DNA of 64,000 bases, from contig JARGFP010000002.1 of the NCBI GenBank assembly GCA_029210585.1, forward strand, positions 248,001 through 312,000, given 5' to 3'. The notes beneath the pieces were generated by a model. That model was not told the origin of the DNA. It did no database searches and was given only the letters and a program-made list of their open reading frames with translations. How positions within the stretch are numbered: position 1 is the first letter of the stretch; every line of letters begins with the position of its first letter. The position numbers were made by a program, and so were the translations under genes. This document shows positions 19,030 through 33,288 of this stretch, piece by piece. This DNA comes from Bacteroidales bacterium. Its GTDB lineage: Bacteria; Bacteroidota; Bacteroidia; Bacteroidales; GCA-2748055.

Positions 19030-20214
19030 TCAGATGTACCGGATGGAGACCTCTTTCAGGAATTTTTCTTCCAGCAGGCGTGCCATTCTCTTCACAACGG
19101 TGCGGCGGATCTCCAGTTCGACGGGCAGGTTGGGGTCCTGGTGGGCGATATTGATCCGGGTGCCGATGATGATCTCTATTTCATCACTTTCACGGACGAG
19201 TTTGATGATCCTGTCTGCAGGTCCGTTGCCAAGTTCGTATGATGGTGAATAGTCTTTCAGAATCCGTGTCACCTTTGTGATGGTAAGAATCCCCTCGGTG
19301 ACCAGGTCAATCCCGGGCATGTTTGATACCGGGGGCAGGTCGGGATCAGAGAACTCCAGGCTGTCTTCGATTTCCACGCCAAGTTCCCTGGCGACAATAT
19401 CTGCGGTAGTGGCCCCGCAAACAATTTTTTTACCTTTGAATTCCTTCACTGCCTGGCCCAGCTTTTTGTCGTTTTCCTCTTCATACGGAGGTCCGGTGGA
19501 AATAAGCAGTTTCCTGGGTTCCCGGAAATAGATACTCGCACAGCTGGTATCATCCTTCGAACTGTAATTGTCATTGCGGTAAGCCATATTGACAATTTTT
19601 TCGGCAAGTTTGACAGCAGAAATGCCTGTTCCGTTCTTCACCAGCTTACAGGCATATTCGTTCAGGTTGTCGTGTCCCCAGCCCAGGGGGTATTTTTCGG
19701 TCCCTAGTCCGCTCTGTGTGATACCGTCGGAAAAGAAGAGGATCCGGTCCTCCTTCCTCGGTTTGAAATGGCAGGTACGGATCTCCTTTCCTTCGTTTTT
19801 GTCGGTATGCATCGTGATGTGTTGCCAGCCGGGGTCAAAACTTTTCAGGTTCCGTATGACGATGGTTTGCGGATTGTCGTATTCCAGGATGGTAATGTGT
19901 CCGTCGGCCTCGATATCGACAATGGTAAAGGTGGAATAACTCATCCTGCGCTCGCTGCACACCGGAAGGGTATTCATGATGATGTCGGCAATGGTTTCCG
20001 GGTGTTTGTGTTCGATGGTGAAATTGACTGCCATCGTGGAGGTAAGTGTTGCCAGCACGTTGGCTTTGACCCCGTGTCCCATGCCATCTGAAAGTACGGC
20101 GATGGTCCTGTTTTCTTCCCGGATTTTTCTTGATATGAACACATCGCCGCAGATTCTTTCGTTCCCGTAGTTGCGTTGTTCGCAGGCGACTTCTATGTAA
20201 AAATTTGTGTTCAT
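19030..20214 (-). CDS. SpoIIE-family PP2C-type phosphatase, hydrogenase-locus associated
   Basis: A 394-residue protein. Residues 1-235 are a SpoIIE/PP2C phosphatase domain with the metal-binding aspartates in SDGMGHGVKANV (Asp43), FFSDGITQSG near 170 and KDDTSCASIYF near 228. Residues 240-394 form a second domain of unknown role that begins LLISTGPPYEEENDKKLG and includes KIVCGATTADIVARELG. No kinase or anti-sigma partner is adjacent. It is 12 bases downstream of the Fe-S/PAS sensor gene on the same strand, so redox sensing and dephosphorylation are probably linked. Similar phosphatases near bifurcating hydrogenases are known in other anaerobes; their targets are not established to my knowledge. 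Confidence 0.85.
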   Translation of the reverse strand: MNTNFYIEVACEQRNYGNERICGDVFISRKIREENRTIAVLSDGMGHGVKANVLATLTSTMAVNFTIEHKHPETIADIIMNTLPVCSERRMSYSTFTIVDIEADGHITILEYDNPQTIVIRNLKSFDPGWQHITMHTDKNEGKEIRTCHFKPRKEDRILFFSDGITQSGLGTEKYPLGWGHDNLNEYACKLVKNGTGISAVKLAEKIVNMAYRNDNYSSKDDTSCASIYFREPRKLLISTGPPYEEENDKKLGQAVKEFKGKKIVCGATTADIVARELGVEIEDSLEFSDPDLPPVSNMPGIDLVTEGILTITKVTRILKDYSPSYELGNGPADRIIKLVRESDEIEIIIGTRINIAHQDPNLPVELEIRRTVVKRMARLLEEKFLKEVSIRYI

Positions 20215-20226
20215 ACCCTGTTTGTC

Positions 20227-22071
20227 TTACTTTTTTGGTTTGTAGGATTCAATGATCGAGTTGAGCATGCGTTCGGTTTCAGAGGCGCCTTCTCCAAGGA
20301 TGAAGCCGATCTGCTGGACAAGGCTCAGGTTCTTGTCGACCACGTCGGTGAGTCGTTTTACAATCTCTTCTTTCTGTACTTCAGGTGCAGAGAGGTCGCG
20401 GATCACAGCCCCCACGATTTTCTGTTTTCGGATAACGAATACGGAAATGCTGTACTGTTTTTCATTCAGGAGAATGTCGCGGTCGGTGATGTTCTCATTG
20501 TTGGCCAGTACATAGGTGAACAGGTTATGAATGTTGTAGGGGAGGAGGGTCTTCAGGTCTGCTCCTGTCAGTCCGGGTACCACTTCATTGATTTCCATGG
20601 CCTCTTCGCCCAGCAGGCCAATGAGGCTTTCATTGGCCTGGATGACCTTCAGGGTTTCGTCGAGGATCACTACGGCAGAGGGCAGTTTCTGCAACATGGT
20701 CCGGGTAATTTCAGAAGCCTCGCGGGCCGATTCTTTCTCCTTCTGGGCGATCTGCTCCGACTCCTTTAGGGCCACCTGTGCCTGGGCCAGCTTTTCGTTG
20801 CTGATCTTCAGGGACTGGATGTGGTCCATGGTATTCCGGGAGGCATAGAAGTTGCACATTTCCGGCACGGCCAGTCCCTGGGCGATCGCCACTGCAAATT
20901 CGTGGCAGGATCTGTATCCGCATGCGCCACACCCCCTTTCCTGGTCACCATGCTTGCGCAGTTCGGCCTGGATCTTTTCCACTTCTTCCGCAGGGGGAGC
21001 TTCCATCCGCTGGTCGTCGTTTCTGAATGACCTGGTGAGACCGATGCCGGAATACTCCAGCAGTGCCTTGTCGTGTGCCTCCTGGTCAAATGTTTTTTCC
21101 CGCTTGTTGAGGTACCGGATGAGCTGGCTCCTGCGCAACCATTTCCGTGCATTGGGAGAGGTACCCCTTCCCATGATGAATTCCTTGTAGAATATATTGA
21201 AGTGTGATTTGATGGTGGTGATGTCTTCTTCAAACTCACGGATACTGTCAAACACCAGGTCGCCCTCTACGGTAATCACCTTTGAAGAAAGCACCCGCTG
21301 TTCGATCCCGGCGGCCTCCAGGATCCCGCTTGACAGCGGAAAAAGGGAGCCCAGGTACCCGATCGGATTATCGAATTCACTGTATTCAAGGTTCTTTTCG
21401 TCGATTTTGTATTCACTGAACAGTTCCCTTAGCTCGATGAATGTGAGCACAGCATCGATCTTTTCATCTTCTGCCAGCCGCACAGCCTCCTGCTTGCTGG
21501 CGATCAGCGGGGAGATATACGCAACCCGCATGTCGTTTCCATATTTTTGTCGCACGACCCTTGCCGTGGCGACGACCGGGGGCATGATGGGAGCCAGGTT
21601 CCTGGTGAGCTCCGGCTTGTATTTTTCCACGTACATTACCGAAATGGGACAGTTGGAAAAGAGGTAATATTTTCCCTTGCTGTCGTCGACGAGCTTACGG
21701 TATTCGGCGGCTACCAGTTCTACCCCGAATGCCACTTCATTTACAAAGCGGAAGCCCAGTTTGCGGACCATGCTCACGAATTTCCTGTAATCGGTGATGT
21801 CAGGAAACTCCCCTGCAATGGAAGGGTCCAGCAGCGCAGTGACTTCCTCCCCCTGCTTGAGGAGCTTGCGCAAATCCGTTTTTCCGTCGCGGATGATAAT
21901 GGCATCCTCGCCACATGCGGCATGACAATTACCGCAGCCAATGCAACGGTCAGGGATGATCATAGGCGCCGGCCTGTCGGGCTCGACCTTGATCGCTTTC
22001 ACCGGGCACGACCTCACGCAGGCATAGCATGCGGTACATTTCTCCTGGTCTATTTTAACTACGGGCTCCAT
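20227..22071 (-). CDS. Fe-S/PAS sensor with degenerate [FeFe]-hydrogenase domain (HydS-like)
   Basis: A 614-residue protein starting at the ATG at 22071 (an in-frame upstream extension to 22149 lacks family character). Two 4Fe-4S ferredoxin motifs lie at Cys12/15/18/22 and Cys43/46/49/53. Residues 75-310 match the hydrogenase large-subunit C-terminal domain. Its first H-cluster loop reads SNCP (Cys141 kept, proton-relay position Asn140), the second reads SPLIA with no cysteine at 189, and the third loop near 293-304 has none. An H-cluster is therefore unlikely. A further Fe-S motif, CGACGYRSC plus Cys406, follows at 381-406, then a coiled segment and a PAS domain at about 462-570. It is probably a redox sensor passing its signal to the adjacent phosphatase. 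Confidence 0.87.
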   Translation of the reverse strand: MEPVVKIDQEKCTACYACVRSCPVKAIKVEPDRPAPMIIPDRCIGCGNCHAACGEDAIIIRDGKTDLRKLLKQGEEVTALLDPSIAGEFPDITDYRKFVSMVRKLGFRFVNEVAFGVELVAAEYRKLVDDSKGKYYLFSNCPISVMYVEKYKPELTRNLAPIMPPVVATARVVRQKYGNDMRVAYISPLIASKQEAVRLAEDEKIDAVLTFIELRELFSEYKIDEKNLEYSEFDNPIGYLGSLFPLSSGILEAAGIEQRVLSSKVITVEGDLVFDSIREFEEDITTIKSHFNIFYKEFIMGRGTSPNARKWLRRSQLIRYLNKREKTFDQEAHDKALLEYSGIGLTRSFRNDDQRMEAPPAEEVEKIQAELRKHGDQERGCGACGYRSCHEFAVAIAQGLAVPEMCNFYASRNTMDHIQSLKISNEKLAQAQVALKESEQIAQKEKESAREASEITRTMLQKLPSAVVILDETLKVIQANESLIGLLGEEAMEINEVVPGLTGADLKTLLPYNIHNLFTYVLANNENITDRDILLNEKQYSISVFVIRKQKIVGAVIRDLSAPEVQKEEIVKRLTDVVDKNLSLVQQIGFILGEGASETERMLNSIIESYKPKK

Positions 22072-22081
22072 GTTTGTTGAT

Positions 22082-22327
22082 TTAGTTGAAAGTGTGCTCC
22101 AGGATTTCCAGGATGTTGTCGGAGTTGATGTTTTCGTATAACCTCTCATTGATCTTCACCACCGGTCCTTTGCTGCAATCACCAAAGCAGTGGTTGCCCT
22201 TCAGGACCACATCTCCCTCCAGCCCATGCTCTTTCAGGTAATGCTGAATCACCTTCAGGGTCTTGTTGTTCCCGCGACTGAAACAGGAGCTCCCCATGCA
22301 GATTTGTATGACTACCTTCTCTTTCAT
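22082..22327 (-). CDS. Thioredoxin-like 2Fe-2S ferredoxin-domain protein
   Basis: An 81-residue protein of the NuoE-like ferredoxin fold. The four cluster ligands are Cys10 and Cys15 (CMGSSC) and Cys47 and Cys51 (CFGDC), the C-x4-C plus C-x3-C pattern. It lacks the helical N-terminus of full NuoE. It is the first gene of the leftward arm, ten bases before the Fe-S/PAS sensor, and divergent from the hydrogenase operon. A role in delivering electrons to the sensor is plausible but inferred. Confidence 0.85.
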   Translation of the reverse strand: MKEKVVIQICMGSSCFSRGNNKTLKVIQHYLKEHGLEGDVVLKGNHCFGDCSKGPVVKINERLYENINSDNILEILEHTFN

Positions 22328-22385: not shown

Positions 22386-22517
22386 GTACTGAAACTCAAT
22401 TTATATTCCGTTTAAATTAATATTTTATTTTCGTAAAACTTTGGAAAACAATGCATAAAAGCAGTATTTGCAGTATTGTTATTGGAAATTTGTTGATTAT
22501 ATGTTATAAAAATCACA

Positions 22518-22535
22518 TTGTTTGTAAATTCACAC
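22518..22535 (+). promoter_or_regulatory. Candidate Rex operator overlapping the hydrogenase-operon promoter
   Basis: The 18 bases starting TTGTTTG and ending TTCACAC resemble the Rex consensus TTGTGAAnnnnTTCACAA, with one strong half-site. It overlaps the -33 element TTTG (22521-22524). The -7 element TATATTTG lies at 22548-22555, and the first gene starts at 22572. Rex itself is encoded at the end of the same gene set. Confidence 0.5.
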
Positions 22536-22571
22536 TAAAATGCAATATATATTTGCAAACAATGATTGCAT

Positions 22572-23033
22572 ATGGACAGGATCGACCAGATATTGAATGA
22601 TTTCCGGCAGGTGAACCGGGATGCACTCATACCGGTGCTGCAGGCTGTACAGGATGAGTTTGGCTACCTTTCGGGTGAGTCCCTGGAAAAAATTGGTGCG
22701 CACCTGCGGCTGCCCGCCAGCAAGATCTATGGATTGGCAACATTTTACAGCCAGTTCACCTTTGCACCCCGGGGAAAATACCACATCAGGGTATGCAATG
22801 GTACCGCGTGTCATATCGACCGGTCCACCTCCATCCTCAAGGAGTTGAACAAGCAGTTGGGAATTGTGGACGGTGAGGCGACGCGGGACGGGATGTTCAG
22901 CCTCGAGGTGGTGGCCTGCATGGGGGCATGCGGACAGTCGCCGGTGATAGCGATCAACGAAGATTATTATCCGAAGGTCAGGAGTTCAGCCATCAGGGGA
23001 TTGCTGGATGACATCAGGACGAAACACAGATAG
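22572..23033 (+). CDS. NuoE-like subunit of NAD-dependent [FeFe]-hydrogenase-type complex
   Basis: A 153-residue 2Fe-2S subunit (HydC/HndA type) that passes electrons between the flavoprotein and the Fe-S chain in bifurcating hydrogenases. A helical N-terminal half precedes the thioredoxin-like domain, with cluster ligands Cys75 and Cys80 (CNGTAC) and Cys116 and Cys120 (CMGAC). The start is the ATG at 22572, only about ten bases after the predicted transcript start, so the leader is very short. The flavoprotein gene begins 12 bases later. Confidence 0.93.
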   Translation: MDRIDQILNDFRQVNRDALIPVLQAVQDEFGYLSGESLEKIGAHLRLPASKIYGLATFYSQFTFAPRGKYHIRVCNGTACHIDRSTSILKELNKQLGIVDGEATRDGMFSLEVVACMGACGQSPVIAINEDYYPKVRSSAIRGLLDDIRTKHR

Positions 23034-23045
23034 AAGCATACAACG

Positions 23046-24995
23046 ATGACGGAGGAGGTACATACAGGTTCCATCAAAAAGCTGATCCCTGAATTCATCG
23101 AGAAGGATCCGAAGGAATATTCCCCGGAACTGGTGGAGTTGATTGAAAGGTTAACACACCTGAAGATACTGAAACCGCTGATCATGGTTGGCCTGAATAC
23201 TTCGGGAAGGATCGCCGGGGCCAGGAGGGTATTTGAGGCGGTGACGGGCTACCTGAAGGAACGGGATATTGATGCCGAGATGGCAGAAACAGGAGCGATA
23301 GGGCTAAATTCAGAGGAACCTGTGCTGAGTGTGCAGCTCCCCGGGAGGACCCGTGTATTGTTTATCAATGTTGCCGTTGATGATGTACAGGTTATACTGG
23401 ATGATGTATTTCACCATACCATTCCCCGTGAAAAGTTGCTCGGACAGATCAGGGATGAAAACATGGATGCATGGCAGGATGTTCCATTCCTTGATGAGCT
23501 TGCGTTTTTTTCCAGGCAGCGCAGGATCCTGCTGAAGCAAAACGGGATCATCGATCCACTGTCGATAGATGCATATATCGCACATGGAGGTTACCGGACC
23601 TTTCTCAAAACCATCAGGTACCATACGCTTGAAGAAATTTGCGTGATGATGGAAGAAAGCGGGTTACGCGGACGATCGGGTAGTGGTTTTCTGACGGGGA
23701 AAAAGTGGATGGTGGCACAGCAAACACCAGCAGAGCAGAAATACCTGGTATGCAACGCAGAGGAAAGTGATCCGGGAGCATTCATGGACCGTGCGCTGAT
23801 GGAAGGCAATCCGCATCAACTGATCGAAGGGATCTGCATTGCCGCCTATGCCATTGGGGCAACGAAAGCATATATCTATATCCGGTCGGAATACAATGAT
23901 TCCATCCGTAAATTGTCTGCTGCCATCCAGGCGGCCCGGGATTACGGTATCCTGGGGCACAATATATTTTTCAGTGGATTTAACCTGTCGATCAGCATCA
24001 GGAAAGGTCCGGGGGCTTTTGTGTGCGGGGAGGAGACGGCGCTGATCGCCAGCATGGAAGGGAAGCGGGGGATGCCACAGTCCAAGCCACCTTATCCGGC
24101 AGAACGTGGATTCCATAAAAAGCCCACCATTGTCAATAATGTGGAGACGCTCTCCAATGTACCCCATATCATTGCCAACGGTCCGGAATGGTTCAGGGGG
24201 ATTGGTACAGGGGACTGCACAGGGACAAAGATTTTTTCCGTCAGCGGAAGGGCGCGCACAAGGGGGCTTATCGAGATCCCCATGGGCACCAGCCTGGAGG
24301 TGCTCGTCCAGGAAATTATCGGTGGCAGTCAGCCAGGTCGTACGCTGAAAGCGGTGCATATCGGTGGCCCCTATGGGGGGATGTTGCCGGCCAGTAAACT
24401 GAATATTCCCGTCTGTTACGAAACCTTCAGGCGGGCGGGGGCTGTGTTGGGTGCCGGGGGGATCCTGGTGCTGGATGAAAAAACCTGCGTGGTGGATCTT
24501 GTGAAGTATTTCATGGGATTTATGAAGCACCAGAGCTGCGGGAAATGTATCCCCTGCAGGGAAGGTACCAAGCGGATGTCGGAACTGCTGGACGAAATCA
24601 CCAGGAAGCCACTGGCAGAGGACCAGCATGATACGCTGGAGAAATTCCGCGGGTTGATGCAGCTTGAGAAACTGGCGGATGTGATGCGGGATACCTCGCT
24701 TTGCGGACTGGGACAGCTGGCAGCCAACCCTCTGATCAGCGCATTGTGGCATTTCAGGGAGGAATTTGAGGAACATATATTCGACCGGCATTGCAAGCCT
24801 AATGTTTGCAGGGAGTTGCGTACCTATTATATTGATGTGGAACTGTGTACGGGGTGTACCGTGTGTGCAAAACGATGTCCTGAAGATGCGATTATCGGCA
24901 CCGAGCGGCACCCGTACTTCATCGTGCCGGATAAGTGTACCGGTTGCGGAATTTGTAAGGAGGTCTGCAAATTCAGCGCAGTTTTTTATAATTAG
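23046..24995 (+). CDS. NuoF-like flavoprotein subunit of the hydrogenase-type complex (HydB/HndC)
   Basis: A 649-residue NADH/FMN subunit. The N-terminal thioredoxin-like region (about 40-110) aligns with the 2Fe-2S domain of HydB but has lost its cysteines: VGLNTSGRIAGA near 48-59 and TGAIGLN at 82-88. The FMN/NADH module is intact (GRSGSGFLTGKKW near 210, CNAEESDPGAFMDRALMEG near 238, EETALIASMEGKRG near 338). A 4Fe-4S site follows in SCGKCIPCREGT near 500 with a later cysteine in SLCGLG. Two C-terminal ferredoxin motifs, CTGCTVCAKRCP and CTGCGICKEVC, end the protein. It lies 14 bases before the large-subunit gene. Confidence 0.93.
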   Translation: MTEEVHTGSIKKLIPEFIEKDPKEYSPELVELIERLTHLKILKPLIMVGLNTSGRIAGARRVFEAVTGYLKERDIDAEMAETGAIGLNSEEPVLSVQLPGRTRVLFINVAVDDVQVILDDVFHHTIPREKLLGQIRDENMDAWQDVPFLDELAFFSRQRRILLKQNGIIDPLSIDAYIAHGGYRTFLKTIRYHTLEEICVMMEESGLRGRSGSGFLTGKKWMVAQQTPAEQKYLVCNAEESDPGAFMDRALMEGNPHQLIEGICIAAYAIGATKAYIYIRSEYNDSIRKLSAAIQAARDYGILGHNIFFSGFNLSISIRKGPGAFVCGEETALIASMEGKRGMPQSKPPYPAERGFHKKPTIVNNVETLSNVPHIIANGPEWFRGIGTGDCTGTKIFSVSGRARTRGLIEIPMGTSLEVLVQEIIGGSQPGRTLKAVHIGGPYGGMLPASKLNIPVCYETFRRAGAVLGAGGILVLDEKTCVVDLVKYFMGFMKHQSCGKCIPCREGTKRMSELLDEITRKPLAEDQHDTLEKFRGLMQLEKLADVMRDTSLCGLGQLAANPLISALWHFREEFEEHIFDRHCKPNVCRELRTYYIDVELCTGCTVCAKRCPEDAIIGTERHPYFIVPDKCTGCGICKEVCKFSAVFYN

Positions 24996-25009: not shown

Positions 25010-26731
25010 ATGATAAAAATAGAAGTAAATAAAAAAGCAGTCAGTGTTGAAAAGGGACAAACCATCCTTTCTGCCCTCAGGGAGCATGGTATTATGGTCC
25101 CAACGCTCTGCAGCATGGAAGAACTTACGCCCACGGGGGCGTGCAGGATGTGCGTGGTAGAGGTGGAGGGATTTGACAACCTGGTGCCCGCCTGTTCATT
25201 CAAGGTACAGGAATGGATGAAGATCAAAACCCACAGTGCACGGGTGCTCAGGGCGCGTAAAGCCAATGTTGAACTGTTGTTGTCGAACCATCCCGACGAC
25301 TGCCTCTACTGTGAGCGCAGCGGTAACTGTGAATTGCAAAAGCTGGCCGAGGATCTGAATGTGCGCAACAGGAGGATCCAGGGAAAACGAACCAGTGCAA
25401 AGATCGATTCTTCCAGCCTGGGCATCGTAAGGGATCCCGATAAATGTATCCTGTGCGGAAGGTGTGTGCGCGTTTGCGAGGAGATCGTAGGCATCTCCAC
25501 CATTGATTTCGAAAGAAGGGGAGACCAGCTGAAAATCGCCACCGCGATGTCGGAACCCCTGCAGTTTTCCAGCTGCATTGACTGCGGCCAATGCGTGGTA
25601 GCTTGTCCCACGGGCGCCCTGATCGATCACAACCAGTTCCAGGAACTCGACACTTCGCTGGACGATCCTGATATGATTGTCACTGTTCAGTATACTCCGG
25701 AAGTGACCGTCTCACTTGCCGAAGCGTTTGGATTCAGGCCGGGCACAGATATGAAGGGGATCATCAACACTGCCTTGCGCAGGATCGGTTTCGACTATAT
25801 TTTTGAAACCGCTTTCGGGGGAGATGTCTTTATCCAGGAGCAGGCTGCTGAACTGATTGCGCGATTCAGGAGAAAGGAGAAGATGCCGATGATTACTTCC
25901 CGTTGCCCTGCCCTTGTCAACTATGTGGAGGAATTTCGTCCTGAACTGATCTCATTCCTTACGCCGGTGCGTCCCCCGCACCAGATCATGGGGAAACTCA
26001 TCAACAAATGGTTTGCCACAAAAAAGCAGGTGCCCTCCAACCGTATCCAGAATGTACTGATCACCAATTGTACCGCTGCAAAATACGAGGCAAGCAGACC
26101 GGAGTATGCCTCGGATAATTCCCCTGATGTGGACTATGTGCTTACCACCAGGGAACTGGCAAGACTCATCAGGCTGAACGGTATCAATATCAACGGACTA
26201 GACCCGGAACCGGCCGACGGGCCCTTCAATGCGATTACTTCTGCCGGAAAGTTGCTTGCCAATGCAGGTGGCGAGGCAGAAGCGACCACGCGCACCGTGT
26301 TCAGGGAAATCAGCAAAAAAGAGATGCAGGATCCGCGCATTACTAAGTTGCGCGGGAACAAATACCTCAGGGATGCTGTGATTGCTACGCCGAAGGGAGA
26401 CCTGCGGGTTGCCGTGGTACACGGACTGAAACATGCCCTGAAGGTCATGGATGAGATCAGCACGGGAAAAAGTGAGTATGACCTGATCGAGATCATGGTC
26501 TGCCGCGAAGGATGTGTGAATGGCGGCGGGCAGCCCATACCTGCAAATGTCAATGTGATCAGGGCCAGGACAAAGACCATTTACGACATCGACAAGAGCG
26601 AAAGCCTGCATTGTGCCCATAAGAACAATGCCGTTGCAAAAATGTACGAAGAATTTGCCAGGGCCCCGGCATCGGACCAGAGCAGGGATCTTTTTATGAC
26701 CAGGTTTGCACACAGGAAAGTACTGAAATAG
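25010..26731 (+). CDS. [FeFe]-hydrogenase large-subunit homologue with altered active site (HydA/HndD type)
   Basis: A 573-residue protein. The N-terminus has a 2Fe-2S domain (Cys in TLCSMEELTPTGACRMC), the His-Cys 4Fe-4S motif HPDDCLYCERSGNC, and two 4Fe-4S motifs (CILCGRCVRVC, CIDCGQCVVACP). The H domain keeps all four cluster ligands: Cys299, Cys354, Cys498 and Cys502, and Met496. However, the usual TSCCP is TSRCP (Arg298 replaces the proton-relay Cys), the usual MPC is TNC (Thr352-Asn353), and the third loop is VCREGC instead of ACPGGC. Catalytic H2 turnover is thus uncertain. Length and domain order match electron-bifurcating hydrogenases. The 3' end is repeated downstream in tandem. Confidence 0.92.
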   Translation: MIKIEVNKKAVSVEKGQTILSALREHGIMVPTLCSMEELTPTGACRMCVVEVEGFDNLVPACSFKVQEWMKIKTHSARVLRARKANVELLLSNHPDDCLYCERSGNCELQKLAEDLNVRNRRIQGKRTSAKIDSSSLGIVRDPDKCILCGRCVRVCEEIVGISTIDFERRGDQLKIATAMSEPLQFSSCIDCGQCVVACPTGALIDHNQFQELDTSLDDPDMIVTVQYTPEVTVSLAEAFGFRPGTDMKGIINTALRRIGFDYIFETAFGGDVFIQEQAAELIARFRRKEKMPMITSRCPALVNYVEEFRPELISFLTPVRPPHQIMGKLINKWFATKKQVPSNRIQNVLITNCTAAKYEASRPEYASDNSPDVDYVLTTRELARLIRLNGININGLDPEPADGPFNAITSAGKLLANAGGEAEATTRTVFREISKKEMQDPRITKLRGNKYLRDAVIATPKGDLRVAVVHGLKHALKVMDEISTGKSEYDLIEIMVCREGCVNGGGQPIPANVNVIRARTKTIYDIDKSESLHCAHKNNAVAKMYEEFARAPASDQSRDLFMTRFAHRKVLK

Positions 26732-27660: not shown

Positions 27661-27921
27661 ATGGAAAGACCTGGTTCATTGGAAAAGCGGATCGGGGCAG
27701 TGGTGATCATTGTCATGGAAAGCGACAGGATTGATGCGCTGAACAGGATCCTTTCAACCCATGCCTCTATGATCCTCGGGCGCCAGGGAATCCCGCTCCG
27801 CGACCGCGAAATGAATGTCATCTCCCTTGTCCTTGAGGGTACTACCGATGAGCTTGGTGCACTTACCGGAAAGCTGGGCAGACTGCCTGGTATTCGTGTA
27901 AGATCGGTCATGGCCACCTGA
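27661..27921 (+). CDS. TM1266-type iron-only hydrogenase system regulator
   Basis: An 86-residue ACT/NikR-C-like domain protein. The pattern EKRIGAVVIIVMESDRIDALNRIL, then SLVLEGTTDELGALTGKLGRLPGIRV matches the small family that occurs with [FeFe]-hydrogenase maturation and structural genes. Its molecular role is unproven. It starts five bases after the rex stop, so the two regulators are co-expressed. No hydrogenase maturation genes (hydE, hydF, hydG) are in the window. Confidence 0.85.
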   Translation: MERPGSLEKRIGAVVIIVMESDRIDALNRILSTHASMILGRQGIPLRDREMNVISLVLEGTTDELGALTGKLGRLPGIRVRSVMAT

Positions 27922-28318: not shown

Positions 28319-30385
28319 ATGATTACTCGTCAGCTTATTGAACCAGAAAGCATTGTAATTATCGGTGCTTCCAATAACCTCATCAAGCCAGGTGGCAAGA
28401 TCTACCACAATATCAAAACTGGTACATTCAAAGGCGCATTGTATGCCGTCAATCCGAAAGAGGAAAAGATCCAGGGTGATCCCTGCTACAGGGAGCTGGC
28501 GGACCTTCCGGAGACCGACCTTGCGATCCTGGCCATACCGGCAAAATTCTGTGCCGAATCGGTGGAATACCTGGCCGCCAGAAAAGCAACCAGGGCCTTC
28601 ATCATCATTTCAGCGGGTTTCAGCGAGGAGAATGAAGAAGGTGCTGCCATTGAACAGCAGATCAAATTGATCTGCGACCGGCACGAAGCTGCCCTGGTGG
28701 GACCCAATTGCATTGGGGTAATGACGCCCGGATACCAGGGGGTGTTTACCCTGCCGATCCCGAAGCTGGACCCAGCCGGATGCGATTTTATTTCGGGGAG
28801 TGGTGCCACGGCCGTATTCATCATGGAAGCCGGCCTGCAGAAGGGGTTGAAATTCAACAGCGTTTTTTCTGTGGGGAATTCGGCGCAGAATGGCGTGGAG
28901 GATGTGCTTGCCTACCTCGATGAAACCTATACCGATGGGATCAGCTCAAAAGCCAAGATCCTCTATTTTGAGTCGATCGGGAATCCCGATAAATTGCTGA
29001 AGCACGCTTCCAGTCTCATCAGGAAGGGTTGTCGCATCGCCGCCATCAAGGCAGGGACCTCCGAGGCAGGAAGCCGGGCTGCTTCCTCGCATACCGGGGC
29101 ACTGGCCAGTTCCGACCAGGCGGTGGATGCGCTGTTCTGCAAGGCCGGGATCATTCGTTGCTATGGAAGGGAAGAACTGGCAACAGTGGCATCCCTGCTG
29201 CTGTATCCCCAGATGCCGGGGAAGAACTACGCAATCATTACCCATGCGGGCGGACCGGCGGTGATGCTGACCGATGCGCTGGCGGAAGGGAAACTGGATG
29301 TGCCAAAACTGGAGGGAAAAGATGCCGAAGCATTGCTGGCACAATTGTTCCCGGGCTCGTCTGCCGCCAATCCCATCGATATTCTTGCCACAGGTACTGC
29401 CGAACATGTGAAACTTTGCCTGGAATATTGTGAGCACAGGTTCGATGAGATCGACAGTGTCATTCTCATTTTCGGAACACCCGGTCTTGCTCCCGTATAT
29501 GACGTGTACGAAGTGCTGCACACACATATGATTACCAGTAAAAAACCGGTCTACCCGGTACTTCCCTCGGTGACGACAGCGGCAGACGAAGTGGCGCAAT
29601 TCCTTTCTTACGGGCACATGAATTTTCCGGATGAAGTCCTGCTGGGTAAGGCCCTGGTGAAGATCAGGTCCGTTGAACCACCTGCCGCCGAAAGTATCTA
29701 CCTGGAGGGCATCAACCTGAAGGAGATCAGGAACATCATTGATACTTCCGGTGACGGGTACCTGGCTCCGGAACGCGTAAATGCCCTTCTGACGGAAGCA
29801 GGAATCCCGGTGGTGAAGGAATATGTGGGCAAGGATCCGGCAGCACTTGCGGCAGCAGCGGAAGAACTGGGATACCCCCTGGTGATGAAGGTGGTCGGCC
29901 CGGTACACAAAACCGATGTCGGCGGGGTGGCACTGGATATAACCTCAGAACAGGAGTTGCTGGAAACCTTGCGTCGCATGGAAAAGATCAAAGACTTCGA
30001 GGCCGTACTTATTCAGCCAATGGTCAGCGGACTGGAATTGTTCGTCGGGGCAACGTATGAACCAGGATACGGCCACGTGGTGATGTGCGGACTGGGAGGG
30101 ATCTTCGTGGAAGCACTGAGGGATATAGCCACGGGGCTTGCACCCCTGACGATGGCAGAGGCAGATCGCATGATCAGGTCACTGCGCTCTTACCGTATGC
30201 TCACCGGTACCAGGGGACAGGAGCCGGTGGATATACACAAATTTGCCGGCATCATTGTGCGCCTCTCCACCATGCTGCATTATTCCCACGAGATTGCAGA
30301 AATGGATATGAATCCGCTCATCGCCGGCGCACAGGGGATTGTAACCGTGGATGCCCGGATCCGGCTGGAAAAAATGGTTCCATAA
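28319..30385 (+). CDS. Acetate/acyl-CoA synthetase (ADP-forming), fused alpha-beta
   Basis: A 688-residue enzyme that converts acyl-CoA, ADP and phosphate to the free acid, CoA and ATP. The alpha part (about 1-450) has a CoA-binding Rossmann fold (VIIGASNNLIKPGGKIYHN near 13) and the phospho-histidine site ASSHTGALASSD with His258. The beta part (about 465-688) is an ATP-grasp domain (PLVMKVVGPVHKTDVGGVAL near 527). Length is that of single-chain ADP-forming acyl-CoA synthetases. It lies 75 bases before the aminotransferase and upstream of the 2-oxoacid oxidoreductase operon, which would supply its acyl-CoA substrate. Confidence 0.92.
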   Translation: MITRQLIEPESIVIIGASNNLIKPGGKIYHNIKTGTFKGALYAVNPKEEKIQGDPCYRELADLPETDLAILAIPAKFCAESVEYLAARKATRAFIIISAGFSEENEEGAAIEQQIKLICDRHEAALVGPNCIGVMTPGYQGVFTLPIPKLDPAGCDFISGSGATAVFIMEAGLQKGLKFNSVFSVGNSAQNGVEDVLAYLDETYTDGISSKAKILYFESIGNPDKLLKHASSLIRKGCRIAAIKAGTSEAGSRAASSHTGALASSDQAVDALFCKAGIIRCYGREELATVASLLLYPQMPGKNYAIITHAGGPAVMLTDALAEGKLDVPKLEGKDAEALLAQLFPGSSAANPIDILATGTAEHVKLCLEYCEHRFDEIDSVILIFGTPGLAPVYDVYEVLHTHMITSKKPVYPVLPSVTTAADEVAQFLSYGHMNFPDEVLLGKALVKIRSVEPPAAESIYLEGINLKEIRNIIDTSGDGYLAPERVNALLTEAGIPVVKEYVGKDPAALAAAAEELGYPLVMKVVGPVHKTDVGGVALDITSEQELLETLRRMEKIKDFEAVLIQPMVSGLELFVGATYEPGYGHVVMCGLGGIFVEALRDIATGLAPLTMAEADRMIRSLRSYRMLTGTRGQEPVDIHKFAGIIVRLSTMLHYSHEIAEMDMNPLIAGAQGIVTVDARIRLEKMVP

Positions 30386-30460
30386 CACATCACGATTATG
30401 TTTAAGGGCACCCCGTCATTGATGTGCTATTTATATTTTCACGGTGCAAAAAAAACAGGT

Positions 30461-31780
30461 ATGAAAAAAACACCCATCGATTCGGAAGTTGTGAACAAAG
30501 TCATTGACGATTTCGGTATCCACCCGGTGGGAAGGGCTACCATCAGGGAGATTGTAAAGATCGTCAATGATATTCAACAGATCACCGGTGAGGAGTTCAT
30601 CCGCATGGAGATGGGTGTGCCGGGCCTGGCTCCGGCGGAAGTAGGTGTTCAGGCCGAGATCGAAGCCCTCAGGTCGGGCGTTGCATCGCAGTACCCCAAT
30701 ATTGAAGGCATACCACCCCTTAAGAAAGAGGTTGCAAGGTTTGTTAAGCTGTTCATGGACATTGATGTGCCTGCGGAATGCTGTATTCCGACAGTAGGTT
30801 CCATGATGGGAGGCATGGCCTCTTTCATGGTGGTGAACAGGTCGGACCATTACCGGACCGGCACCCTTTTCCTTGATCCAGGATTTCCTGTTCAGAAGCA
30901 GCAGTGCCTGGTGCTGGGACATACCTACGGGTCGTTCGATCTATATGATTTTCGGGGCGACAGGCTCGAGGCCAAACTGGAAGAGGAGATCAACCTGGGC
31001 AGGTATTCATCCATCCTCTATTCCAACCCGAATAACCCGTCATGGATCTGCCTCACGGAAAAGGAACTGGAGATCATCGGCAGGATTTCACGCAAATATG
31101 ATGTTACGGTAATTGAGGACCTGGCCTATTTCGGTATGGATTTCCGGAAGGACATGTCACAACCCGGGAAGCCGCCTTACCAGCCTACTGCCGCAAGGTA
31201 TACCGATAACTGGCTGATGCTTATTTCGAGCTCCAAGGCATTCAGTTACGCCGGGCAACGTATCGGCATGATGGTGGTATCGCCTACGCTGTATGACAGG
31301 AGGTTTCCTGATTTGAAGCGGTATTACAGTTCCGATAAATTCAGTCATGCCATGATCTACGGCGCGCTGTATGCACTTTCAGCCGGGGCTGCACATGCAC
31401 CGCAATATGCGCTTGCCGCCATCCTGAAAGCAGTGAATGACGGCACCTATGATTTCATCAAGGTAGTGCGGGAATACGGGGAAAAGGCAAAGATCATGAA
31501 GGCACTTTTTTTGAAATACGGCTTCAGGATTGTATATGAAAAGGACCTTGACGAACCGATAGCGGACGGGTTCTATTTTACCATTGCCTACCCGGGATTC
31601 CAGGGAACGGCGCTGGTGGAAGAGTTGCTGTTTTACGGGATCAGCGCCATTGCACTGAACATCACGGGAAGTGCCTACACGGAAGGTTTGCGGGCCTGTG
31701 TGTCGCAGGTGCGCAGGGACCAGTTCGGGGTGCTGGAAGATCGCCTCCGCCGTTTTGCTGAAAACCATCCCGTTGCATAA
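30461..31780 (+). CDS. Aminotransferase class I/II (PLP-dependent)
   Basis: A 439-residue enzyme starting at the ATG at 30461. An ATG at 30398 would add 21 residues with no family character. The PLP-binding lysine is in LISSSKAFSYAGQRIG near residue 262, and the SNPNNPSW motif near 188 and the Asp-containing VIEDLAYFGMDF near 217 complete the cofactor site. It supplies 2-oxoacids from amino acids. It lies between the acyl-CoA synthetase and the oxidoreductase genes, which together make a deamination, oxidation and substrate-phosphorylation route. The exact amino acid cannot be read. Confidence 0.9.
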   Translation: MKKTPIDSEVVNKVIDDFGIHPVGRATIREIVKIVNDIQQITGEEFIRMEMGVPGLAPAEVGVQAEIEALRSGVASQYPNIEGIPPLKKEVARFVKLFMDIDVPAECCIPTVGSMMGGMASFMVVNRSDHYRTGTLFLDPGFPVQKQQCLVLGHTYGSFDLYDFRGDRLEAKLEEEINLGRYSSILYSNPNNPSWICLTEKELEIIGRISRKYDVTVIEDLAYFGMDFRKDMSQPGKPPYQPTAARYTDNWLMLISSSKAFSYAGQRIGMMVVSPTLYDRRFPDLKRYYSSDKFSHAMIYGALYALSAGAAHAPQYALAAILKAVNDGTYDFIKVVREYGEKAKIMKALFLKYGFRIVYEKDLDEPIADGFYFTIAYPGFQGTALVEELLFYGISAIALNITGSAYTEGLRACVSQVRRDQFGVLEDRLRRFAENHPVA

Positions 31781-31867
31781 TGCATATTGCTTCTAAATTG
31801 AGGCTTTTTGGGATAAATCATTTTATACGGGGATAACTTTTTTTTAATATCGGCAGGTTATCTATAC

Positions 31868-31895
31868 TTTTCCGTAGTAAATGGCCGACGGAAAA
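31868..31895. other. Inverted repeat upstream of the ferredoxin oxidoreductase operon
   Basis: TTTTCCGT and ACGGAAAA with a 12-base loop, about 80 bases before the first gene of the operon. It could be an operator or leader hairpin. A TAACTTTT -7-like element lies just upstream near 31833. Confidence 0.35.
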
Positions 31896-31974
31896 ACACC
31901 GGGAAATCCGGGAAAAAAGATGTGGGACACCTCAACATCATGGTACATTGAGAAAGTAAACTAAAATCTGAGTT

Positions 31975-32205
31975 ATGGGAAAAATGAGAGGAGCCATCGT
32001 AGTAGATACCGAACGCTGTAAAGGGTGCGAGGTATGTATTGTAAATTGCCCGACAGATACCATTGGCATGGCAGAAGAAGTAAATGGGAAAGGATATCAC
32101 TACGCCTATATGAAACATCCCGAAAATTGTACTGGTTGTGCGAACTGCGCAATCGTATGTCCGGATGGCGTCATCACGGTCTACAGGGTAAAAACTGAAA
32201 AATAA
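31975..32205 (+). CDS. 2-oxoacid:ferredoxin oxidoreductase, ferredoxin (delta) subunit
   Basis: A 76-residue bis-4Fe-4S ferredoxin subunit with motifs CKGCEVCIVNCP near residue 15 and CTGCANCAIVCP near 52. It is the first gene of the delta-alpha-beta-gamma operon and is followed by the alpha gene after 12 bases. It receives electrons from the TPP-containing core and passes them to soluble ferredoxin. Confidence 0.93.
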   Translation: MGKMRGAIVVDTERCKGCEVCIVNCPTDTIGMAEEVNGKGYHYAYMKHPENCTGCANCAIVCPDGVITVYRVKTEK

Positions 32206-32217
32206 AGAAATACAGAT

Positions 32218-33288
32218 ATGGGTGAAATTCAATTAATGAAAGGGAATGAGGCCGTTGCAGAAGCAGCGATCCGGGCCGGACTGGATGCGTATTTCGGCTA
32301 TCCCATCACACCGCAGTCTGAGGTGCTTGAATACCTGACACTTCAGCGGCCGGAGGAACGCACCGGCATGGTGGTGTTGCAGGCAGAAAGTGAGATTGCT
32401 GCAATCAATATGGTATATGGTGCCGCCGGTACCGGCAAAAAAGTCATGACCTCCTCTTCCAGTCCGGGCATCAGCCTGAAAATGGAAGGGATCAGTTATA
32501 TAGCGGGAGCTGAATTGCCTTGCCTGATTGTGAACGTGGTCCGTGGCGGTCCCGGACTGGGGACCATACAGCCTTCGCAGGCAGACTACTTCCAGGCTAC
32601 CAAGGGAGGCGGACATGGCGATTACAGGCTGTTGGTGCTGGCGCCTGCATCGGTGCAGGAGATGGCAGATTTTGTTGACAAGGGAATGGAGCTGGCGTTT
32701 AAATACCGGAACCCCGTGATGATCCTCTCTGACGGACTGATTGGCCAGATGATGGAGAAGGTGGAACTGCCCCAGCAGAAGGAGCGTGTGACCGAATTTG
32801 ATCCCAGCTGGGCCACCACCGGGAAAACGCCCGATCGTGAAAGGAACATCATCACTTCCCTGAACCTGGATCCTGAAAAGCAGTATGAGCATAATATGAA
32901 ACTCCAGGAGAAATATGCCCGCATGAAGGAAGATGTGATGTATGAAACCTTCGATTGTGATGATGCTGAATTCCTGCTGGTGGCCTATGGATCCAGCGCC
33001 AGGATTTGTCAGAAAGCTGTTAATGTGGCACGCAGCCGGGGTAAAAAGCTCGGACTGTTGCGACCGATTACCCTGTTTCCTTTTCCAACAGAGATCATTG
33101 CAAAATTATCACGACAGGTTAAAGGGATCCTTTCTGCTGAACTGAATGCAGGACAGATGGTGGAAGATGTCAGGCTGGCAGTAAACGGGCGCATCCCTGT
33201 GTACCATTACGGGACCCCGGGCGGTAAGATCTACTCGCCCGATGATATTTTGAAAGCAATTGATGAAAAACTAATGGGAGGATACTAA
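32218..33288 (+). CDS. 2-oxoacid:ferredoxin oxidoreductase alpha subunit (VorB-like)
   Basis: A 356-residue subunit with the pyrimidine-binding and transketolase C-terminal-like domains. Seen: MKGNEAVAEAAIRAGLDAYFGYPITPQSEV near the N-terminus, SSPGISLKMEGISYIAGAELP near 80, and the C-terminal AYGSSARICQKAVNVARSRGKKLGLLRPITLFPFP near 260-295. This short form is usually named 3-methyl-2-oxobutanoate dehydrogenase VorB in Bacteroidetes. The substrate could equally be 2-oxoglutarate or aromatic 2-oxoacids. Its stop abuts the beta-subunit ATG. Confidence 0.92.
   Translation: MGEIQLMKGNEAVAEAAIRAGLDAYFGYPITPQSEVLEYLTLQRPEERTGMVVLQAESEIAAINMVYGAAGTGKKVMTSSSSPGISLKMEGISYIAGAELPCLIVNVVRGGPGLGTIQPSQADYFQATKGGGHGDYRLLVLAPASVQEMADFVDKGMELAFKYRNPVMILSDGLIGQMMEKVELPQQKERVTEFDPSWATTGKTPDRERNIITSLNLDPEKQYEHNMKLQEKYARMKEDVMYETFDCDDAEFLLVAYGSSARICQKAVNVARSRGKKLGLLRPITLFPFPTEIIAKLSRQVKGILSAELNAGQMVEDVRLAVNGRIPVYHYGTPGGKIYSPDDILKAIDEKLMGGY

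What the first reader, a model, noticed from the sequence alone, without database searches (positions are those of the whole stretch)
25010..26731. Hydrogenase large subunit with Arg in place of the proton-relay cysteine
All four H-cluster ligands (Cys299, 354, 498, 502) are intact, yet TSCCP is TSRCP, MPC is TNC and ACPGGC is VCREGC. In studied [FeFe]-hydrogenases the relay Cys next to the first ligand is critical for H2 turnover. The codon CGT at 25901 is unambiguous. The complex may have low or shifted activity, act as a sensor, or use a different proton path or substrate.
Basis: partly seen in the sequence, partly recalled or inferred. Interest (0 to 1): 0.75.

Follow-up and report, generated by a model that had tools for sequence, protein, structure and literature searches.

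The report
Hydrogenase subunit with eroded active site
A bacterial enzyme complex built like an electron-bifurcating hydrogenase keeps its iron-sulfur wiring but has lost many of the residues that hold and serve the hydrogen-making iron centre, so it probably no longer makes hydrogen and may instead pass electrons to redox-signalling proteins encoded beside it.

Summary
In detail: HydA (25010-26731) has Arg298 (CGT, 25901-25903) where [FeFe]-hydrogenases have relay Cys299; all four cubane cysteines remain. But Arg is only part of it. Glu279 is Gln, Met353-Pro354 is Thr-Asn, and Lys358 beside the [2Fe] subsite is Ala. The Arg is real: the four genomes of this genus that were searched have it, through four different codons. 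Among 121 homologues the relay is neither Cys nor Asp in 29, and 28 of these also lack Lys358. All 34 relay variants fall in one 43-row Bacteroidota clade, mostly with a conserved neighbourhood (SpoIIE-type phosphatase, H-cluster-less HydS, [2Fe-2S] protein, Rex). Cys355, Cys499 and Cys503 are kept in all 121. HydB has co-lost N-terminal [2Fe-2S] cysteines (24 of 26 Lys358-less rows against 4 of 74). Close pairs from a sister genus evolve under purifying selection. I conclude: a BfuABC (HydABC) complex, very probably not an efficient hydrogenase, probably without [2Fe]H, keeping cubane and NADH/ferredoxin core. A role in redox signalling is inferred from neighbourhood only. Maturases hydE, hydF, hydG are in this genome; the maturase test in relatives was inconclusive. 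No such complex was seen in the listings.

The parts
25010..26731 (+). HydA*/BfuA: N-terminal [2Fe-2S] and [4Fe-4S] motifs, then H-domain with four cubane Cys (C299, C354, C498, C502) but eroded [2Fe] pocket
   Evidence: AF2 model pLDDT 90.2, best PDB match T. kivui HydA 8a6t_A, TM 0.94
25901..25903 (+). Arg298 codon CGT at the place of CpI relay Cys299
   Evidence: alignment
25841..25843 (+). Gln278 codon CAG at the place of CpI Glu279 (second proton relay)
26078..26080 (+). Ala357 codon GCA at the place of CpI Lys358
23046..24995 (+). HydB/BfuB (NuoF type): FMN domain, B1, B2 (Cys481, His577, Cys583, Cys588) and two C-terminal [4Fe-4S] kept; N-terminal [2Fe-2S] (B5) Cys lost
   Evidence: ligand scheme from PMC9304861 section 6, mapped by spacing
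22566..23033 (+). HydC/BfuC (NuoE type) with four [2Fe-2S] Cys (77, 82, 118, 122 of the printed frame); true start probably ATG 22572
22082..22327 (-). 81-aa thioredoxin-like [2Fe-2S] protein
   Evidence: PF01257
20227..22149 (-). HydS1*: two N-terminal [4Fe-4S], H-domain without L2 and L3 cysteines, C-terminal CX2CX4CX16C, weak PAS match (E 0.0058, below cut-off); start probably the ATG at 22071
19030..20214 (-). SpoIIE-type (PP2C-like) phosphatase
   Evidence: PF07228
27018..27656 (+). Rex, redox-sensing repressor
   Evidence: NF003995 above cut-off
27661..27921 (+). TM1266-family putative iron-only hydrogenase system regulator
   Evidence: TIGR03959 above cut-off

Best explanation
This is a HydABC/BfuABC complex descended from a group A3 electron-bifurcating [FeFe]-hydrogenase. 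Its HydA keeps the H-domain fold and the [4Fe-4S]H cubane ligands but has lost most of the proton path and several residues that seat the [2Fe] subsite, so it works as an iron-sulfur electron wire and not as an efficient hydrogenase. NADH and ferredoxin enter at the HydBC core; electrons run along HydA to the cubane. Inferred step: the cubane hands electrons to, or takes them from, the neighbouring H-cluster-less HydS1*/[2Fe-2S]/SpoIIE-phosphatase module, so that the complex reports the NAD(H)/ferredoxin redox state. Shown: the residue losses, their joint occurrence, purifying selection in relatives, the locus. Inferred: no efficient H2 turnover (about 0.85), absence of [2Fe]H (about 0.65), signalling as output (about 0.3).
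For: C299R plus E279Q plus K358A, M353T, P354N, F417L, Q325H, S232E in one protein. Only Asp replaces the relay Cys with detectable activity in the CaHydA saturation library, limit 14%; E279Q and C299A/S under 1% in CpI. Of 29 rows (of 121) with relay neither Cys nor Asp, 28 lack Lys358; of 5 Asp rows 4 keep Met-Pro and Lys358; all 87 Cys rows keep Lys358. Cys355, Cys499, Cys503 kept in 121 of 121; Cys300 kept in all 43 rows of the clade. HydB Cys84/88 incomplete in 24 of 26 Lys358-less rows against 4 of 74. H-domain dN/dS 0.04-0.22 in 7 pairs of the window's 18-row subclade, all from the sister genus; in 4 pairs of the window's own genus pS is saturated (0.75-0.88) and pN 0.11-0.30; Arg kept through four codons. 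Apo-HydABC without [2Fe]H holds all other clusters (PMC9499530, passages). Locus: phosphatase and HydS1 27 of 30, Rex 32 of 32 in the clade, against 0 of 16, 0 of 16 and 1 of 20 in the canonical sister clade.
Against: hydE, hydF, hydG are in the genome, so [2Fe]H could be supplied. G018 (82% complete) has hydE, F and G, yet its only PF02906 proteins at E up to 1e-15 are eroded HydA*, the H-domain kinase and HydS1, which could mean that maturases serve HydA*. Group C and D sensory hydrogenases lack the relay and still turn over H2 slowly (PMC10407848, passages). The role of Lys358 as hydrogen-bond donor to a cyanide ligand is recalled, not taken from a call. The tree offers only 3 independent pairs for the relay/Lys358 link, too few for significance. 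The H-domain kinase and REC-kinase also stand beside canonical HydABC in the sister clade, so signalling genes are not specific to the eroded state, and this genome lacks that kinase. HydB also lost B5 cysteines in 4 rows with Lys358.
Confidence: 0.6

Rival explanations
1. A slow, sensory-type hydrogenase: HydA* still carries [2Fe]H and turns over H2 at a very low rate through another proton path, as group C and D HydS do.
For: Group C/D enzymes lack Cys299 and vary Met353, yet hold an H-cluster and have low activity (passages). Maturases are in the genome. Met497 is kept. Signalling genes nearby.
Against: Those sensory enzymes are reported to keep the residues that hydrogen-bond [2Fe] (PMC10055695, passage); here position 358 is Ala, 232 Glu and 354 Asn. 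The genome's own HydS (L005) reads PCAAK, with Lys three after the ligand Cys.
Confidence: 0.2
2. A Bfu enzyme with another third substrate or none: a non-hydrogenase oxidoreductase linking NADH and ferredoxin to an unidentified partner protein that docks at the cubane.
For: About half of the Bfu family use third substrates other than H2, and NiFe-Bfu has a [4Fe-4S] cluster in place of the H-cluster (PMC9304861, sections read). B1, B2, B3, B4 and C1 ligands are kept here.
Against: No catalytic partner gene was recognised next to HydA* among the genes identified; genes beyond Rex in relatives were not identified. Loss of B5 departs from the core described as invariant.
Confidence: 0.15
3. A decaying hydrogenase without function.
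For: H-domain differs faster than the N-terminal domain (median ratio 1.78 in the 18-row subclade against 1.08 in the canonical sister clade).
Against: dN/dS far below 1 in both domains in relatives, cubane Cys kept, locus kept, new pocket residues fixed in the sister genus (S299, S354, A358 in 13 of 13 rows). Rows with Cys relay in the same clade show 1.41 and canonical Ignavibacteria-type rows 1.59.
Confidence: 0.05
4. Arg298 is a working substitute: a pendant guanidine near the diiron site, as in [NiFe]-hydrogenases, giving a hydrogenase with another base.
For: Arg is conserved in the 4 searched genomes of the genus by different codons; [NiFe]-hydrogenases use a pendant Arg (PMC10430524, abstract start in listing).
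Against: Related lineages with lost Lys358 have Ser or Ala there; Glu279 is Gln; in the CaHydA library, said to cover all 20 residues, only Asp and Cys were detectably active.
Confidence: 0.04

Closest known systems
Group A3 electron-bifurcating [FeFe]-hydrogenase HydABC (T. kivui 8a6t, A. woodii 7q4v, T. maritima 7p5h)
   Same: Three subunits, cofactor motifs of HydA, HydB core and HydC, fold (TM 0.94, 39% identity to 8a6t_A)
   Different: Relay Cys, Glu279, Met353-Pro354 and Lys358 replaced; N-terminal [2Fe-2S] cysteines of HydB missing
BfuABC family (Schut et al. 2022, PMC9304861, sections 4-6 in part)
   Same: HydB/HydC core with B1-B4 and C1 ligands, including His577
   Different: B5 lost; no known third-substrate module recognised
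Sensory [FeFe]-hydrogenases HydS, groups C and D (PMC10055695, PMC8163306, PMC10407848, passages)
   Same: No relay Cys; Met353 replaced by a small hydroxyl residue; linked to signalling genes
   Different: Domain order is that of HydA, not HydS; pocket residue 358 lost here, hydrogen-bonding residues reported as kept in HydS
Nar1 hydrogenase-like protein (PMC12621388, abstract and outline)
   Same: H-domain relative with Fe-S clusters but no [2Fe]H
   Different: Eukaryotic Fe/S assembly factor; HydBC partners are not part of it (recalled)
hfsABCD locus of Thermoanaerobacterium (PMC11837493, passages)
   Same: Hydrogenase beside a PAS-hydrogenase sensor and a serine-phosphatase-like protein
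   Different: HfsD is a ferredoxin-linked hydrogenase; hydABCD is a separate operon there

Membership tests
Group A [FeFe]-hydrogenase (TIGR02512) / A6 (NF040763) | Score above the curated cut-off | tested here: not met
   369.7 against 405.95 and 640.6 against 765 bits. Controls: canonical L060, L071, L085, L039, L038 pass both; eroded L041, L051, L118 fail both; Asp-relay L053 passes only TIGR02512 (430.3); but L125, with a canonical pocket in the same clade, also fails both (378.3, 632.5), so the failure is not specific to erosion
Group A3 [FeFe]-hydrogenase | Four H-cluster cubane ligands | tested here: met
   C299, C354, C498, C502
Group A3 [FeFe]-hydrogenase | Proton path C299-E279-S319-E282 | tested here: not met
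   R, Q, T, E
Group A3 [FeFe]-hydrogenase | [2Fe]H bound and H2 turnover | not testable with these tools
   needs protein; pocket residues 232, 353, 354, 358, 417 changed
Group A3 [FeFe]-hydrogenase | hydEFG in the genome | tested here: met
   HydE and HydF on C105, HydG on C28
BfuABC | B1, B2 (with His), B3, B4 and C1 ligands | tested here: met
   HydB Cys list and His577; HydC four Cys; mapping by spacing to the numbering
BfuABC | B5 N-terminal [2Fe-2S] in BfuB | tested here: not met
   positions 53, 84, 88 are S, A, N
BfuABC | Electron bifurcation between NAD(H), ferredoxin and a third substrate | not testable with these tools
   biochemistry needed
Sensory HydS (group C/D) | C-terminal Fe-S motif (PF04060 type) and PAS or kinase on the H-domain protein | tested here: not met
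   no PF04060, PAS or kinase match on HydA* at E up to 0.001; the neighbour HydS1* has PF04060

The most novel reading that the evidence does not exclude
A whole electron-bifurcating hydrogenase complex has been turned, several times within one Bacteroidota clade, into an H2-independent reader of the NAD(H)/ferredoxin balance: the diiron catalyst is discarded, the cubane kept as an electron outlet, and the signal passed to hydrogenase-derived Fe-S sensor proteins and a SpoIIE phosphatase encoded beside it.
Probability: 0.3. Interest if true: 0.8.

Novelty: new variant of a known kind. Interest (0 to 1): 0.6.

Why it matters
It would show how a bifurcating hydrogenase loses its catalyst while keeping its wiring, with different stages alive in one clade: canonical pocket, Asp relay with intact pocket, and eroded. 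It gives natural sequences for testing which residues are needed to hold [2Fe]H, and whether NADH/ferredoxin coupling needs B5 or the H-cluster. In practice, calling such genes hydrogenases from Pfam PF02906 (237 bits here, far over its cut-off) would over-count H2 producers among Bacteroidales MAGs.

Tried and rejected
Artefact: rejected; intact frame, Arg in four genomes with four codons.

Arg as the decisive feature: rejected; it is one of seven letters at the site in the clade besides Cys.

Maturase absence as proof: inconclusive. G014 (88% complete) has no hydE or hydG match and no hydF match over cut-off, and its only PF02906 proteins at E up to 1e-15 are eroded HydA*, the H-domain kinase and HydS1, which fits. 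G018 (82%) has all three maturases with the same three kinds of PF02906 protein, which does not fit. G016 (96%) lacks the maturases but carries two HydA with canonical motifs; G007 and G011 lack them too while holding HydA with canonical motifs. HydE was searched in 31 genomes, HydF and HydG in 119.

Curated NCBIfam scores as a mark of erosion: weakened by a control; L125 with a canonical pocket also falls below both cut-offs.

Faster H-domain as a mark of erosion: weakened; ratio 1.41 for Cys-relay and 1.51 for Asp-relay rows of the same clade, 1.59 for canonical Ignavibacteria-type rows.

Conserved operator: an inverted repeat at 22516-22564 was not found by the same pattern in 8 related loci.

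New third-substrate gene next to HydA*: none recognised; the 3.4-kb stretch between HydA and Rex in many relatives holds an H-domain histidine kinase and a REC-HisKA-HATPase protein, and these also occur with canonical HydABC.

Residue geometry around Arg298: not examined; the structure tool returned no coordinates.

Rows dropped: 4 short hits before the 125-row alignment. L149, L126, L034, L138 before the 121-row tree: with them the counts are relay not Cys 36 of 125 and Lys358 lost 31 of 125 (L034 Ser with Asp358, L138 Ala with Met358); L149, a frame of 527 aa against about 570, reads Phe at 503, the one cubane exception in 125. HydB rows with a gap at position 84 or 88 before the count of 100. 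One dN/dS pair (L105-L112) used the wrong row and is ignored. One of the 32 related sequences (L105) is an H-domain kinase, not HydS1, and is not counted.

Full report
1. The observation. The frame at 25010-26731 encodes 573 aa. Against CpI in the PDB alignment residue numbers run one below CpI in the H-domain. The relay Cys299 is Arg298, codon CGT at 25901-25903. The cubane cysteines are all present. The three other genomes of the genus that were searched carry Arg at this site with codons AGA, CGC and AGG, so the residue is real and has been kept while its codon changed.

2. In the same protein Glu279 is Gln, Lys358 is Ala, Met353-Pro354 is Thr-Asn, Gln325 is His, Phe417 is Leu and Ser232 is Glu. 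Ser319 is Thr; Glu282, Arg286 and Met497 are kept. In CpI, E279Q and C299A or C299S each give less than 1% activity, while C299D and its HydA1 counterpart keep 30-80% (PMC6226526, passages). In CaHydA a saturation library at this site found activity only for Asp, with a detection limit of 14% (PMC3485046, passages). That Lys358 hydrogen-bonds a cyanide ligand of the distal iron is recalled knowledge. A passage in PMC10055695 says that residues which hold [2Fe] by hydrogen bonds are kept in sensory hydrogenases, whereas C299, M353 and M497 vary there; it does not name Lys358. The HydS of this same genome (L005) keeps Lys at that place (PCAAK).

3. The organism. The nearest named records are Bacteroidales MAGs: L081 (JAUUZQ010000001.1) and L082 (JAIPBT010000043.1), both 61% identical. 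The genome has 4.61 Mb in 116 contigs, 99% complete, with five PF02906 matches: HydA*, its neighbour HydS1*, a HydS (L005) and two HydA with canonical pockets (L001 TSCSP/MPC/K, L002 TSCCP/MPC/K).

4. Homologues. From 119 genomes, this one included, flanked regions and the 80 best named loci of a capped list I aligned 125 distinct HydA and built a tree of 121 with the 24 pocket columns left out (quick method, SH-aLRT support only). A 43-row clade (97*) joins a 28-row clade in which every row is canonical (71 rows together, 100*). All 34 rows whose relay is not Cys lie in the 43-row clade; its other 9 rows have Cys. Arg occurs in 4 rows forming one clade (99*). The window's 18-row subclade (99*) has no row with relay Cys or Lys358; its sister pair L053/L055 has Asp with Met-Pro-Cys and Lys358 intact.

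5. Joint loss. Relay neither Cys nor Asp: 29 of 121. Lys358 lost: 29 of 121. Both: 28. The exceptions are L089 (Asn with Lys358) and L079 (Asp with Arg358). All 87 Cys rows and 4 of 5 Asp rows keep Lys358. The fewest changes on the tree are 5 for each trait. Only 3 independent pairs on starred branches exist, so no significance can be claimed. By contrast C355, C499 and C503 are kept in 121 of 121 (one exception in all 125, the cut frame L149), and C300 is Cys in all 43 rows of the clade. Thus the cubane is under constraint while the diiron pocket is not kept in its old form. In the 13-row clade next to the window's genus a new pocket is fixed: S299, S354, A358, Q279 and A232 in 13 of 13.

6. 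Selection. In seven pairs, all from that 13-row clade, H-domain dN/dS is 0.04-0.22 and N-terminal dN/dS 0.02-0.11 (simple counting method; dS is saturated in two of the pairs). Within the window's own genus synonymous sites are saturated (pS 0.75-0.88) while pN is 0.11-0.30 in four pairs, so no ratio is given there. The ratio of H-domain to N-terminal differences is 1.78 (median of 152 pairs) in the 18-row subclade, 3.71 in the Ala/Met lineage (7 pairs), 1.50 in single eroded rows, 1.41 in Cys-relay and 1.51 in Asp-relay rows of the clade, 1.08 (378 pairs) in the canonical sister clade, 1.00 in TSCSP rows of other phyla and 1.59 in canonical Ignavibacteria-type rows. Faster H-domain change is therefore not proof of lost function.

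7. HydB. Schut and co-workers (PMC9304861; section 4 part 1 of 2, section 5 parts 1-2 of 3, section 6 part 1 of 2) describe a conserved BfuBC core with clusters B1-B5 and C1 and propose that B5 stores electrons next to C1. Here the B2 ligands Cys481, His577, Cys583 and Cys588 are present, as are the B1 and C-terminal cysteines and the four of HydC (assignment by spacing to their numbering is mine). The N-terminal thioredoxin-like domain has lost its cysteines (S53, A84, N88). Across 100 HydB with positions 84 and 88 readable, these are not both Cys in 24 of 26 rows whose HydA lacks Lys358, and in 4 of 74 others (L053, L055, L065, L134); related rows are not independent. The losses travel together, also in the separate Ala/Met lineage (L118, L120, L122, L123, L129). 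L068 and L078 have lost Lys358 but kept both cysteines.

8. Locus. In the 43-row clade (window not counted) loci with enough flank show on the opposite strand a SpoIIE-type phosphatase in 27 of 30, HydS1 in 27 of 30 and the small [2Fe-2S] protein in 24 of 30, and downstream Rex in 32 of 32; in the canonical sister clade 0 of 16, 0 of 16, 0 of 16 and 1 of 20. The L3 motif is absent from the window's HydS1* and from 31 related HydS1, some of them cut short. The L2 cysteine is missing in the window's 18-row subclade (rows with a HydS1 read) and in L053, but present in the others where that part was readable. Downstream of HydA, 23 of 35 loci carry a protein with Fe-S motifs, an H-domain and HisKA-HATPase, and 26 of 32 a REC-HisKA-HATPase protein; the canonical sister clade has these in 23 of 24 and 22 of 22 (domains read in two examples of each). 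This genome lacks the H-domain kinase (best match is HydS1* itself, 36%). So signalling genes are an old companion of this HydABC lineage; the phosphatase, HydS1 and Rex belong to the clade in which erosion happened.

9. Structure. AlphaFold2 with 47 aligned sequences gives pLDDT 90.2 and pTM 0.89; the best PDB matches are T. kivui and A. woodii HydA and CpI. The fold is that of a hydrogenase; no coordinates were returned, so Arg298 geometry is untested. Published apo-HydABC without [2Fe]H holds all other clusters (PMC9499530, passages), so a HydABC without the diiron site is structurally sound. Nar1 is a precedent for a hydrogenase-like protein without [2Fe]H (PMC12621388, abstract).

10. Maturases. 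HydE and HydF lie together on C105 and HydG on C28 in this genome. This neither supports nor excludes [2Fe]H in HydA*, because two canonical HydA are present. Tests in relatives conflict (G014 for, G018 against, G016, G007 and G011 uninformative).

11. Conclusion. HydA* belongs to the HydABC/BfuABC lineage by descent and fold. It fails the curated scores for group A [FeFe]-hydrogenases, as do three other eroded rows, while five canonical controls pass; but L125 with a canonical pocket fails too. It fails the proton-path feature; hydrogenase activity was not testable. It most likely works as an electron-transfer subunit ending in the cubane. That the electrons serve a signalling output is an inference from the neighbourhood. 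The full-text searches (open-licence papers only, listings seen) showed no description of such an eroded HydABC, which is not proof that none exists.

Noticed in passing
window 20227-22149; 31 related loci: HydS1* is a HydS-like protein without the L3 H-cluster cysteines in every member read (some are cut short); the window's subclade has also lost the L2 cysteine. An H-cluster-less sensor family conserved with the phosphatase.
   Followed up: partly
L051:9962-11947 and L051:12371-13510, and equivalents in many clade and sister loci: A protein with Fe-S motifs, H-domain without L3, and histidine kinase, followed by a REC-HisKA-HATPase protein, beside HydABC.
   Followed up: partly
L001/L038 (own genome) and many rows of other phyla: TSCSP: the first cubane ligand position (CpI C300) is Ser with an otherwise canonical pocket; A. 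woodii HydA1 in the PDB reads the same.
   Followed up: no
L053, L055, L067, L080: Natural Asp at the relay with intact MPC and Lys358: wild counterparts of the active C299D mutant.
   Followed up: partly
L092, L099, L113, L114: HydB-like frames of 1088-1258 aa against about 650 aa, perhaps fusions.
   Followed up: no
L134: A canonical HydA whose HydB has nevertheless lost Cys84/88.
   Followed up: no
G007, G011, G016: Genomes with canonical HydA motifs but no hydE, hydG or over-cut-off hydF match; binning loss or real absence not settled.
   Followed up: no
window 22516-22564: Inverted repeat CATTGTTTGTAAAT/ATTTGCAAACAATG just before hydC, possible operator; same pattern not found in 8 related loci.
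   Followed up: partly
window 28319-33288: ADP-forming acyl-CoA synthetase type protein, aminotransferase and 2-oxoacid:ferredoxin oxidoreductase subunit downstream: perhaps an amino-acid fermentation set that would yield reduced ferredoxin.
   Followed up: no
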